37,522 bases of DNA from Flavobacteriaceae bacterium (GTDB taxonomy: Bacteria; Bacteroidota; Bacteroidia; Flavobacteriales; Weeksellaceae): contig JAISMV010000053.1 of the NCBI GenBank assembly GCA_031276535.1, forward strand, positions 1-37,522. Direction: 5' to 3'. Under the pieces are notes generated by a model. That model made no database searches. It worked only from the letters and a program-made list of their open reading frames with translations, and was not told the DNA's origin. The translations under genes were made by a program, and so were the position numbers. Positions 32,036-37,522 of this stretch are shown here, in pieces; the stretch's first letter is position 1; every line of letters begins with the position of its first letter.

Positions 32036-35000
32036 ATCCACAATAGTAGAAATTATAATGAGTCGTTAGACCACTAGTCTACAAAATGAAGAATCTGAAT
32101 CTACAATAGTAGAAATTATAATGAGTCATTAGACGTTTCTTTCCCGTTTGAAGTTGTCCGGAATCTACAATAGTAGAAATTATAATGAGTCGTTAGACCT
32201 TGTTTTTTTTAAACAGTTTTTGCGCTATCTACAATAGTAGAAATTATAATGAGTCGTTAGACTTCACACGAACGCCACGAAATACCCCTTCATCTACAAT
32301 AGTAGAAATTATAATGAGTCATTAGACGACCTACATAGACACATTAACAGACGATATCTACAATAGTAGAAATTATAATGAGTCATTAGACTCGCTACAC
32401 CAGAAGACATTGTAGAGGACGTATCTACAATAGTAGAAATTATAATGAGTCATTAGACTACCAACATTATAGCGGTCGGTGAACTCATCTACAATAGTAG
32501 AAATTATAATGAGTCATTAGACTTTCTAAATTAATCATGGTTATTTTTTTATCTACAATAGTAGAAATTATAATGAGTCATTAGACGATGTGTCCGGGAA
32601 GTTTAGCTGTGAATCTACAATAGTAGAAATTATAATGAGTCATTAGACCCCCGTCAGCGGATTCAAACTCCAGTTCGATCTACAATAGTAGAAATTATAA
32701 TGAGTCATTAGACCTTCGTTCAGTTCGCATCAAAAACAGATATCTACAATAGTAGAAATTATAATGAGTCATTAGACTGTTGCAATTGCAAACATTTGAT
32801 AGTGATCTACAATAGTAGAAATTATAATGAGTCATTAGACTTACAAGCAGAAATCGATGCTAGCAATATCTACAATAGTAGAAATTATAATGAGTCATTA
32901 GACGTTCTTGAAGAATGGCAGGATGGTGATGAATCTACAATAGTAGAAATTATAATGAGTCATTAGACGTCTAGTGTACAGTACAGGGTCGGACTTGAAT
33001 CTACAATAGTAGAAATTATAATGAGTCATTAGACATTTTTATTTTTCTTGTTATTTTCATCTATCTACAATAGTAGAAATTATAATGAGTCATTAGACAC
33101 GTGCGTTGCGACCCATTCGGAATTGATCTACAATAGTAGAAATTATAATGAGTCATTAGACGTCAAAAAGGAGGCGGATTTTTATATCATTCAATCTACA
33201 ATAGTAGAAATTATAATGAGTCATTAGACCTTTGTAAGGCGGAATTAGTTTGGGCGCAATATCTACAATAGTAGAAATTATAATGAGTCATTAGACGTGC
33301 GGATTCATTCGATTGAGGATTCCGATCTACAATAGTAGAAATTATAATGAGTCATTAGACCCTGCAAAAACAGATGCACCGCCAATTATCTACAATAGTA
33401 GAAATTATAATGAGTCATTAGACATGGAACATATACCCATACTTGCCAAAGATCTACAATAGTAGAAATTATAATGAGTCATTAGACAAATTGTACTAAT
33501 TAACGAATCCCTGTTATCTACAATAGTAGAAATTATAATGAGTCATTAGACGTTCTGAAATTCATACTGACAGATTTGGATCTACAATAGTAGAAATTAT
33601 AATGAGTCATTAGACCCACAATGCGGAGTACCCTCCGTCGCTACCGTATCTACAATAGTAGAAATTATAATGAGTCATTAGACATCTGAAAATTCGATGT
33701 ATGGCCTGAATATCTACAATAGTAGAAATTATAATGAGTCATTAGACGTGCGGTTGGTCATCATCGCCTATTTATCTACAATAGTAGAAATTATAATGAG
33801 TCATTAGACATGCTTCATATTTTGTTCATGATTTTAATCTACAATAGTAGAAATTATAATGAGTCATTAGACATCAGTATTCATCAAACCGGAGAAATTA
33901 ATCTACAATAGTAGAAATTATAATGAGTCATTAGACATCTGTATGGCGGGGGTGTGTTCGTGGATCTACAATAGTAGAAATTATAATGAGTCATTAGACA
34001 TCGGAAGAGGTGCGGGAGCAGATGATATCTACAATAGTAGAAATTATAATGAGTCATTAGACTGGTTGAATATCGAAAGAACATTGAAAAATCTACAATA
34101 GTAGAAATTATAATGAGTCATTAGACCTTTACATTAATAAAAATCAAACATCATATCTACAATAGTAGAAATTATAATGAGTCATTAGACCTAAATGAAT
34201 AATTTCAGCTCTCAACCGGATCTACAATAGTAGAAATTATAATGAGTCATTAGACGCGCACCCCCCAACGCCCCCGCCATAGATCTACAATAGTAGAAAT
34301 TATAATGAGTCATTAGACTAGAAGATGTACTTAGTGTAAGGCTTTTATATCTACAATAGTAGAAATTATAATGAGTCATTAGACTAAATTTACATCTTCA
34401 TAGGTGAGAGTAAATCTACAATAGTAGAAATTATAATGAGTCATTAGACGGTATTTTCGGCGGATCAATCAACAGATCTACAATAGTAGAAATTATAATG
34501 AGTCATTAGACCAGCAATTCAACTGTTCGAGACGGACGAATCTACAATAGTAGAAATTATAATGAGTCATTAGACTCTATCTCATTAGATAGTTCAATAG
34601 CAATATCTACAATAGTAGAAATTATAATGAGTCATTAGACAAAGAGTTTCTTCTCCTACAACTGGTAATCTACAATAGTAGAAATTATAATGAGTCATTA
34701 GACTGAGAAGGCTTTCGCAGAATTTTTCGAATCTACAATAGTAGAAATTATAATGAGTCATTAGACTTTTAATGATAAAGAAATTGCCAAAAAACATCTA
34801 CAATAGTAGAAATTATAATGAGTCATTAGACCTAGGGAAGTTGCACCCTGCGTGGTTAATCTACAATAGTAGAAATTATAATGAGTCATTAGACAAAAAT
34901 CACTTGAGGGGTTAACTTTAGCTATCTACAATAGTAGAAATTATAATGAGTCATTAGACATAATGGCTGTGTCAGGCTGTCGCTGTCATCTACAATAGTA

Positions 35001-35598
35001 GAAATTATAATGAGTCATTAGACTTTTTTTTCATACTAATGACGGCGATAAATCTACAATAGTAGAAATTATAATGAGTCATTAGACGTATTCCTCGTTG
35101 GTCGGATTCTCTTCATCTACAATAGTAGAAATTATAATGAGTCATTAGACAGAATAGAACCCCTATGGAGGATATAACGGATCTACAATAGTAGAAATTA
35201 TAATGAGTCATTAGACCCGAAAATGATAGATAACGCACAACTAAATCTACAATAGTAGAAATTATAATGAGTCATTAGACGATCAAAAACACCTATAACT
35301 CTTTCTAAATCTACAATAGTAGAAATTATAATGAGTCATTAGACAAAATTTCAAACAAAAAGAAACTAATCATCTACAATAGTAGAAATTATAATGAGTC
35401 ATTAGACATCCCATTGTAACAACTTAAAAAATAGATCTACAATAGTAGAAATTATAATGAGTCATTAGACTACAAAAGAGCTACTTGGGTAGGCGCACCT
35501 ATCTACAATAGTAGAAATTATAATGAGTCATTAGACTGCCGACTTACCGGCATGAGCGAAGAATCTACAATAGTAGAAATTATAATGAGTCATTAGAC
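32036..35598 (-). CRISPR. Type V-A CRISPR array, 56 repeats / 55 spacers, transcribed on the minus strand
   Basis: 36-nt repeat (+ strand ATCTACAATAGTAGAAATTATAATGAGTCATTAGAC; crRNA sense GTCTAATGACTCATTATAATTTCTACTATTGTAGAT); spacers 26-32 nt, all different by eye; adjacent cas2-cas1-cas4; variant repeats only at the cas-distal end. Confidence 0.98.
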
Positions 35599-35779
35599 TC
35601 TAATCTTTTTTATTACTACAAAGGTAGTTGTTTTTCAGGATATTTGCAACTTTTCCTGAAAATTATTTTTCTCCCCCCTATATCATTATTTTTTTTATCC
35701 AGAAATTTCAAAGAACTTATTATAAACACTTTACACTTAAAACCCTACCATATCCTCAAAAAATAGAGACCGGGGTTTG
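35599..35779 (-). other. CRISPR leader region
   Basis: A/T-rich non-coding 181 bp between the first leader-proximal repeat and the cas2 stop. Confidence 0.8.
35619..35649 (-). promoter_or_regulatory. Predicted pre-crRNA promoter
   Basis: Minus strand TTG (35649-35647), 20-nt spacer, TACCTTTG (35626-35619): fits the Bacteroidota TTG / TAnnTTTG architecture, pointing into the array. Confidence 0.7.
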
Positions 35780-36055
35780 TCAGGTAAAATAAAGCAAATC
35801 TTGGTCGCGATGGATGGCATTACCGTATTTTACTGCTTTCTTCTCATCTGTTTCAAAAATAAAAACACTGTCGCCCCCACCGAAACGTTTGGCAAAGACC
35901 GATTCAATCTTTATCTTTAAAATATCTTGTACCCTTTTTGTATTATTGATCTCGAAAACAGAATACTGCAACCTTATACCTCCCTGTTTCACAAGCATCT
36001 TGGAAAAACGGGTTCGTAATTTATTATCAGATATATCGTAACTTACTACAAGCAT
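35780..36055 (-). CDS. cas2: CRISPR-associated endonuclease Cas2
   Basis: Start placed at M23 of the ORF track: MLVVSYDISDNKLRTRFSKMLVKQGGIRLQYSVFEI...; SYDISD catalytic motif; 11 nt after the cas1 stop. Confidence 0.95.
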   Translation of the reverse strand: MLVVSYDISDNKLRTRFSKMLVKQGGIRLQYSVFEINNTKRVQDILKIKIESVFAKRFGGGDSVFIFETDEKKAVKYGNAIHRDQDLLYFT

Positions 36056-36066
36056 ATTGTTTTTTA

Positions 36067-37038
36067 TTATTTGATTAAAAACCGTGGATAATTTACCGCA
36101 TCTTTTTGTTGCATAAAACAACGATAATATGTTTGTATATACTTAAAAACAGTTGACTTTTGTTCAATCAGCACATCATAAAACATTTTAGTATAATCTT
36201 TATTTTTTTCGTACTTCAAGACATATTCATTTTTGATAAGGTTAAAATCTTCTATTTTGCATTGCTGAAGATTAAAGGCTTTTCGCACCTGCTGGTCGAT
36301 TAGACAACGAAAGGGCTCCACCAGATCGCATATCAGCGACTTACGCTTGAACCATAGTTGATGATAGACTCCCCTATAGGGATCAAAGCCGAATAAACGG
36401 ACAAATGCCTCAATGTAATTGAATAAAAGAGTATATCCTATGTCGAGCGTGGAATTTATAGGGTCGGTTTTCACCCGCGGACAACGGGCTCTCCACGAAA
36501 ACGACTCAAAGTAGGAAGAGAAAAAAGCTGTTGATGCCTTCCCCTCTATCCCCATCACCGAATCATAAGTAGAAGCACAAGGAAGCATAAGCAATAAACC
36601 GTTGCACAGCTTTTTAGCATTTTCCATAGACTCCGATTTCAAGCGGGTTTTTTCCAATAACCGAATTTGATTTCTGATCTTGTTTTCTACCAATACTTTA
36701 GGGATTTGTAAATTCTCCTTTTCGTATTCATATTGTTTCTTTCGTAATAAAAAATTGGCTTCCGCCGTGATGGAAAAGAAAAATACAGGACGAAAATTAG
36801 GCTTCATCACAACCAAAGGAATACCATATCGGGTGCATTTATCTATCAATGGCGTGGTTATGGTAACATGTCCGATAACAAACAACGCCAGTATCTTCTG
36901 AAAGGGTAATTTAGTCAGAGTTTTCTTTTCTGCCGTATCTTCCAGCAAAAGCTCACCGCTCATCACTCGTAACGATCTGTTTTCGATACAATTAATAACG
37001 AATACAGACCTATATTCTATGTCTTTATGTGTAAACAT
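36067..37038 (-). CDS. cas1: CRISPR-associated endonuclease Cas1 (type V-A-like)
   Basis: 323 aa; MGIEGKASTAFFSSYF, GFDPYRGVYHQLWFKRKSLICDLVEPFR contain the expected Glu/His/Asp metal-site residues. Confidence 0.97.
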   Translation of the reverse strand: MFTHKDIEYRSVFVINCIENRSLRVMSGELLLEDTAEKKTLTKLPFQKILALFVIGHVTITTPLIDKCTRYGIPLVVMKPNFRPVFFFSITAEANFLLRKKQYEYEKENLQIPKVLVENKIRNQIRLLEKTRLKSESMENAKKLCNGLLLMLPCASTYDSVMGIEGKASTAFFSSYFESFSWRARCPRVKTDPINSTLDIGYTLLFNYIEAFVRLFGFDPYRGVYHQLWFKRKSLICDLVEPFRCLIDQQVRKAFNLQQCKIEDFNLIKNEYVLKYEKNKDYTKMFYDVLIEQKSTVFKYIQTYYRCFMQQKDAVNYPRFLIK

Positions 37039-37522
37039 TTTCTATTTCTGTTTTGTCGCACAAGCTGCAGTAGATACAGTGCCTGCATTTATTTTCATTC
37101 GTAAATATGGCAGCTTCCGGATTGAACTGTTTAAATTTCAGAATAAGTCTCACCAACTCGGCTTTTCCCTCTTCTGCAGGTATTTTAACAGGAAACGTCT
37201 TATTGGTTGCAATAGCGTAAAAAGCCAGCTTTTCAATTTCATATCCCATCTCAATCATGCAAAAATACTGCGCCCAGAGTTGGTAGATCTGCCCCTGATA
37301 AATAGTGTTTAACTGATATTTTCGTTCTATCAGCAATTTCTCCTTTACCTTGTAAATATCTATTTTCCCTGCAATGCCCAATTCGTCGCAATACACCGAC
37401 AACCCTGTGATCTCATCTTTCCGACTGCTATATTTCTTCTCATCAATTGCCGCATGGGCAGCTTTCCCCCGTGTTTGGGGAAAAGCATGAACCAAATCCT
37501 CATCACCTCCCGCATACACATT
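37025..37522 (-). CDS. cas4: CRISPR-associated exonuclease Cas4, 5' end outside the window
   Basis: TRGKAAHAAIDEKKYSSRKDEITGLSVYCDELGIAGKIDIYKVKEKLLIERKYQ...QIYQLWAQYFCMIEMGY; C-terminal CRHCIYCSLC; 14-nt overlap with cas1. The N-terminal portion is missing. Confidence 0.93.
   Translation of the reverse strand, partial: NVYAGGDEDLVHAFPQTRGKAAHAAIDEKKYSSRKDEITGLSVYCDELGIAGKIDIYKVKEKLLIERKYQLNTIYQGQIYQLWAQYFCMIEMGYEIEKLAFYAIATNKTFPVKIPAEEGKAELVRLILKFKQFNPEAAIFTNENKCRHCIYCSLCDKTEIENVYT

What the first reader, a model, noticed from the sequence alone, without database searches (positions are those of the whole stretch)
35780..37522. Complete V-A adaptation module; the effector should lie just outside the window
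Minus-strand order cas4-cas1-cas2-leader-array matches the usual cas12a-cas4-cas1-cas2-array layout. cas4/cas1 overlap by 14 nt and cas1/cas2 are 11 nt apart, suggesting one transcript. The Cas4 sequence is truncated at the window edge, so an undescribed Cas12a ortholog probably starts upstream (beyond 37522).
Basis: partly seen in the sequence, partly recalled or inferred. Interest (0 to 1): 0.75.

Follow-up and report, generated by a model that had tools for sequence, protein, structure and literature searches.

The report
Type V-A CRISPR locus, effector missing
The contig carries the spacer-acquisition genes and a 56-repeat array of a recognisable Cas12a-type (V-A) CRISPR system; it ends 23 codons inside cas4, and the cutting enzyme that normally sits next door is not in any contig of this draft genome, so which enzyme it uses cannot be read here.

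Summary
Confirmed: minus-strand cas4 (3' part), cas1, cas2, leader and a 56-repeat array form a typical type V-A adaptation module and array (Cas4_PREFRAN, Cas1_PREFRAN, Cas2, all above cut-off; no conserved Cas1 residue lost). "Complete" is wrong: cas4 lacks its first ~23 codons, because the window is the whole contig (G000:C128). The proposed extension is impossible: no Cas12a, Cas12a2 or Cas12a3 is found on any of the 152 contigs, though the same searches find them in relatives' genomes. In 43 of 45 decidable cas1 relatives an effector lies upstream of cas4, so an unassembled neighbour is the best explanation. In the nearest Cas1 clade (MAGs from several phyla) similar modules sit beside standard Cas12a, a ~29%-identical Cas12a lineage, Cas12a plus Cas12a2, Cas12a plus Cas12a3, or (Planctomycetaceae) no effector; one of those genomes has cas12a with its own array on another contig. 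The gene touching cas4 is often RhuM, Cas12a2 or Cas12a3, so a 5-kb extension could miss Cas12a. A new member of a known kind; modest interest. Side leads: a lone repeat on C94, a degraded Cas12a2, the split Planctomycete layout.

The parts
37025..37522 (-). cas4, 3' part (165 codons); about 23 N-terminal codons missing at the contig end
   Evidence: TIGR04328 216 bits, profile positions 20-178; relatives begin with about 23 further residues containing the FCPYS cysteine
36067..37038 (-). cas1 (323 aa), intact
   Evidence: TIGR04329 cas1_PREFRAN 418 bits over cut-off 300; all residues conserved in at least 95% of 41 relatives are kept
35780..36055 (-). cas2 (91 aa from the ATG)
   Evidence: TIGR01573 37.4 bits, PF09827 50.8 bits; most relatives' cas2 are 89-93 aa
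35599..35779 (-). leader, with a TAnnTTTG promoter box at 35619-35626
32036..35598 (-). CRISPR array: 56 repeats GTCTAATGACTCATTATAATTTCTACTATTGTAGAT, 55 spacers; repeats 53, 54 and 56 are variant (distal end)

Best explanation
This is the acquisition half and the array of an ordinary type V-A CRISPR-Cas system whose effector region was lost at a contig break. Cas4-Cas1-Cas2 trim and insert spacers of about 28 bp at the leader end. The array is transcribed from the leader promoter. A Cas12a-family nuclease encoded upstream of cas4 would cut the pre-crRNA at the UCUAC hairpin and use the guides. The most likely missing genes are cas12a, alone or in tandem with cas12a2 or cas12a3, with or without a rhuM gene. 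Shown here: the genes, their family, the array, its polarity and a leader promoter motif. Inferred: acquisition and transcription activity, the existence, identity and position of the effector, and interference.
For: PREFRAN Cas4 and Cas1 models over cut-off. No loss of conserved Cas1 residues. 56-repeat array with Cas12a-type handle and consistent polarity. In 43 of 45 decidable relatives an effector of the Cas12a/a2/a3 group lies upstream of cas4 (classes confirmed for examples by NCBIfam, and PDB matches). The contig ends inside cas4 and its last 223 bp occur nowhere else in the assembly, consistent with a break rather than a natural end.
Against: No effector in the 93.5%-complete assembly by query types that do find effectors in relatives' genomes. 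Some close relatives have the module without an adjacent effector. No spacer could be matched to a phage or virus, so activity is not supported independently.
Confidence: 0.85

Rival explanations
1. Split system: the cas4-cas1-cas2 module with its array stands alone and a Cas12a-family effector sits at another locus, as in the Planctomycetaceae relatives.
For: L016 and L022 have housekeeping genes (phosphoglucomutase; S41 peptidase) instead of an effector upstream of cas4, and L022 and L056 have no array after cas2; genome G100 has cas12a with an 18-repeat array on another contig.
Against: In the window the array is still attached to cas2, unlike L022 and L056; no effector was found on any other contig of this genome; all decidable Bacteroidota relatives have the effector upstream.
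Confidence: 0.06
2. The effector has been lost: a relic module, possibly serving the type II Cas9 system seen on contig C122 of the same genome, or not used at all.
For: No Cas12a-group effector in the assembly; a cas9-like gene and a separate cas1 exist on C122.
Against: cas1 and cas2 are intact and cas1 is fully conserved; the 52 leader-proximal repeats are identical; the Cas12a-type hairpin differs from type II repeats (established knowledge); the contig break explains the absence more simply.
Confidence: 0.05
3. An RNA-targeting effector alone (Cas12a2 or Cas12a3 without cas12a) lies upstream.
For: L031 and L055 have Cas12a3 and L044 has Cas12a2 as the only effector seen upstream.
Against: No member of the window's own Cas1 clade shows this; where Cas12a2 or Cas12a3 occurs there, cas12a is also present (L013, L020, L035).
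Confidence: 0.04

Closest known systems
Type V-A CRISPR-Cas (cas12a-cas4-cas1-cas2-array; PREFRAN models)
   Same: Gene order, Cas4_PREFRAN, Cas1_PREFRAN, Cas2, repeat hairpin, spacer size, leader position
   Different: Effector and cas4 start not in the assembly
Tandem Cas12a + Cas12a2 loci with a shared array (PMC9811890)
   Same: The two nearest Cas1 relatives, L013 (81%) and L035 (79%), are of this kind; L013's cas12a2 is a deleted remnant
   Different: Not observable in the window
Cas12a3 loci (PMC12851939)
   Same: L020 (75% Cas1) has Cas12a followed by Cas12a3 next to cas4
   Different: Not observable in the window

Membership tests
Type V-A CRISPR-Cas | Cas12a effector in or near the locus | tested here: inconclusive
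   Contig ends in cas4; TIGR04330, a Cas12a protein, a Cas12a2 protein and a Cas12a2/a3 profile find nothing in the 152 contigs, while TIGR04330 and the profile find effectors in relatives' genomes
Type V-A CRISPR-Cas | Cas1 of the V-A (PREFRAN) subfamily | tested here: met
   TIGR04329 418 bits, cut-off 300
Type V-A CRISPR-Cas | Cas4 of the V-A (PREFRAN) subfamily | tested here: met
   TIGR04328 216 bits, cut-off 70, N-terminus cut
Type V-A CRISPR-Cas | cas2 downstream of cas1 | tested here: met
   TIGR01573 37.4 bits, cut-off 24.5
Type V-A CRISPR-Cas | Repeat ending in a UCUAC-loop-GUAGA hairpin | tested here: met
   AATTTCTACTATTGTAGAT in the repeats; fold pairs UCUAC with GUAGA
Type V-A CRISPR-Cas | Protospacers with a 5' T-rich PAM | tested here: inconclusive
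   No significant match of the spacers to phages; six spacers had no exact match in viral contigs
Cas12a + Cas12a2 tandem system | cas12a2 gene present | tested here: inconclusive
   None in the assembly; region upstream of cas4 not assembled

The most novel reading that the evidence does not exclude
The locus belongs to a pool of adaptation modules exchanged between gut bacteria of different phyla, in which cas4-cas1-cas2 stays similar while the effector is swapped (Cas12a, distant Cas12a, Cas12a2, Cas12a3) or uncoupled to another site. The window's effector would then be a swapped or detached one, and the lone repeat on contig C94 would be a free-standing crRNA gene that directs this effector to a regulatory target.
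Probability: 0.1. Interest if true: 0.55.

Novelty: new member of a known kind. Interest (0 to 1): 0.3.

Why it matters
On its own this is one more V-A locus with its effector missing. The comparison is more useful: within one Cas1 clade (about 71-81% identity to the window) at least four effector arrangements and apparent uncoupling occur across several phyla, so Cas1/Cas4 similarity does not predict which nuclease is used. Searches that extend only a few kb from cas4 would miss cas12a in tandem loci.

Tried and rejected
Effector elsewhere in the genome: no hit with TIGR04330, P0001, the L035 Cas12a2, or a nine-member Cas12a2/a3 profile. A close relative with the full locus: none in 99 relatives or 398 order members; the best were 43-55% identical. 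Spacer targets: nothing significant in the own genome or in phages; six spacers and the repeat had no exact match in viral contigs. The second Cas1 hit in the genome (C122) is a neighbour of a cas9-like gene, not a second V-A module. The 1635-aa ORF downstream of cas2 in L056 was suspected to be an effector but is a flagellin. Target of the C94 lone repeat: only chance-level matches in C94 and the window. Papers: no report linking RhuM with Cas12a loci, nor of termite-gut Cas12a systems, came up in the held library under the terms used.

Full report
Check of the observation. The three genes are real and are named by curated models: Cas4_PREFRAN (216 bits), Cas1_PREFRAN (418 bits) and Cas2 (37 bits), all above cut-off. 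The stated spacings are right (14-nt overlap, 11-nt gap, with the cas2 ATG at 36055). Cas1 keeps every residue that is conserved in at least 95% of 41 relatives. The array has 56 repeats and 55 spacers, mostly 27-29 bp. Repeats 1-52 and 55 are identical; repeats 53, 54 and 56 carry changes, so the old end is the low-coordinate end and the leader faces cas2. A TAnnTTTG promoter box lies 21-28 nt before the first repeat, as in most Bacteroidota relatives checked. The module is not complete: relatives' Cas4 has about 23 further N-terminal residues including a cysteine.

Where the effector is. The window is the entire contig C128 of a 152-contig, 93.5%-complete assembly. TIGR04330, the Cas12a of the nearest relative, the Cas12a2 of L035 and a Cas12a2/a3 profile all find nothing in this genome. 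Two of these queries ring in relatives' genomes in the same runs, so the absence from the assembly is real. The last 223 bp occur nowhere else in the assembly. The effector is therefore either on unassembled or unbinned DNA next to cas4, or absent.

What relatives show. A cas1 scan of one genome per species gave 49 loci. Forty-three have an effector of the Cas12a group upstream of cas4. Two (L016, L022) have about 3 kb upstream and none. Four are cut too short (L017, L056, L057, L060). Effector classes: standard Cas12a; a lineage about 27-31% identical to L013's Cas12a (L014, L015, L029, L040, L041, L045), of which L014's scores 539 bits in TIGR04330, cut-off 300; Cas12a2 (L035 matches PDB 8d49 at 793 bits); and Cas12a3 (L020 matches 9hlx at 1268 bits). 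PMC9811890 describes tandem Cas12a/Cas12a2 with a shared array, and PMC12851939 describes Cas12a3.

The window's own clade. A Cas1 tree (quick method) puts the window in a 13-row group of moderate support (85) with Bacteroidales, Campylobacteraceae, Planctomycetaceae and Ignavibacteria MAGs. Many carry isolate names of one MAG series that I take to be from termite guts; that is my reading of the names, not a record field. Within this group the effector arrangement is Cas12a (L019, L025), distant Cas12a (L014, L015, L040), Cas12a + Cas12a2 (L035; L013 with a deleted 439-aa Cas12a2), Cas12a + Cas12a3 (L020), none (L016, L022), or cut (L017, L056). Over the whole tree all labels together need 16 changes against a shuffled mean of 17.4, so they are hardly clustered, and the module and the effector appear to change partners; incomplete loci and modest support limit this. 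Between L013 and L035 a stretch of cas4 is 93-98% identical at the DNA level while neighbouring windows are 72-87%, which suggests recent exchange within cas4.

Gene next to cas4. It is Cas12a in L015, L019, L025 and L040; RhuM (PF13310) in L013 and L014, and a RhuM-like ORF at the contig edge in L017; Cas12a2 in L035; Cas12a3 in L020.

Split systems. In the Planctomycetaceae relatives the module lies beside housekeeping genes, and L022 and L056 show no V-A array after cas2. The genome of L022 has a 1426-aa Cas12a followed by an 18-repeat array on another contig, and a second Cas12a on a third.

Mechanism and verdict. Most likely an ordinary V-A system: Cas4-Cas1-Cas2 acquire spacers at the leader, the leader promoter drives the pre-crRNA, and an upstream Cas12a (perhaps with a tandem RNA-triggered effector) processes and uses it. 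Acquisition, expression and interference are inferred. No spacer target was found. The module is rare in the window's own order (one other genome in 398 at E <= 1e-110) and absent from eight genus members, so it was probably acquired horizontally (inference).

Noticed in passing
G000:C94:2834-2902 (L012): A single V-A repeat (33 of 36 bases as in the window's array) followed by 32 nt and a terminator-like hairpin, in an intergenic region not conserved in the genus; a candidate free-standing crRNA gene. No target found in C94 or the window.
   Followed up: partly
L015:3163-3181 and L019:3490-3508: Lone repeat handles upstream of cas12a. The L015 guide has a 9-nt seed match behind TTTA in the cas12a promoter region (3274); L019 has a weaker one. 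They resemble CreR regulators, reported for type V-A in the review PMC12737573.
   Followed up: partly
L016, L022, L056; L091 (G100:C56): Planctomycetaceae with cas4-cas1-cas2 detached from effector and array; L091 has cas12a plus an 18-repeat array without acquisition genes. In L056 a short ORF that looks like the start of an IS66-type transposase lies against a truncated cas4 at the contig edge.
   Followed up: partly
L013:5494-6813: Remnant Cas12a2 (439 aa) joining parts equivalent to residues 284-578 and 1099-1207 of the L035 protein, between cas12a and rhuM.
   Followed up: yes
L058:1286-5059: 1257-aa effector-like protein with only about 185 bits to Cas12a3 structures and no NCBIfam match; could be a divergent or unnamed clade (Cas12a4 not available for comparison).
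   Followed up: partly
L013:6815-7444, L014:3934-5010, L017:2-943, L055:6367-7395: RhuM-like genes between the effector and cas4 (PF13310 matched in L013, L014 and L055; L017 judged by sequence likeness to L014); no paper in the held library was found that links them.
   Followed up: partly
G000:C122 (L003): Same genome also has a 1685-aa Cas9-like protein, a 107-aa ORF and a cas1 fragment cut by the contig end, probably a type II system.
   Followed up: no
L044:2580-6797: Cas12a2-like gene (1405 aa) on the strand opposite to cas4-cas1-cas2.
   Followed up: no
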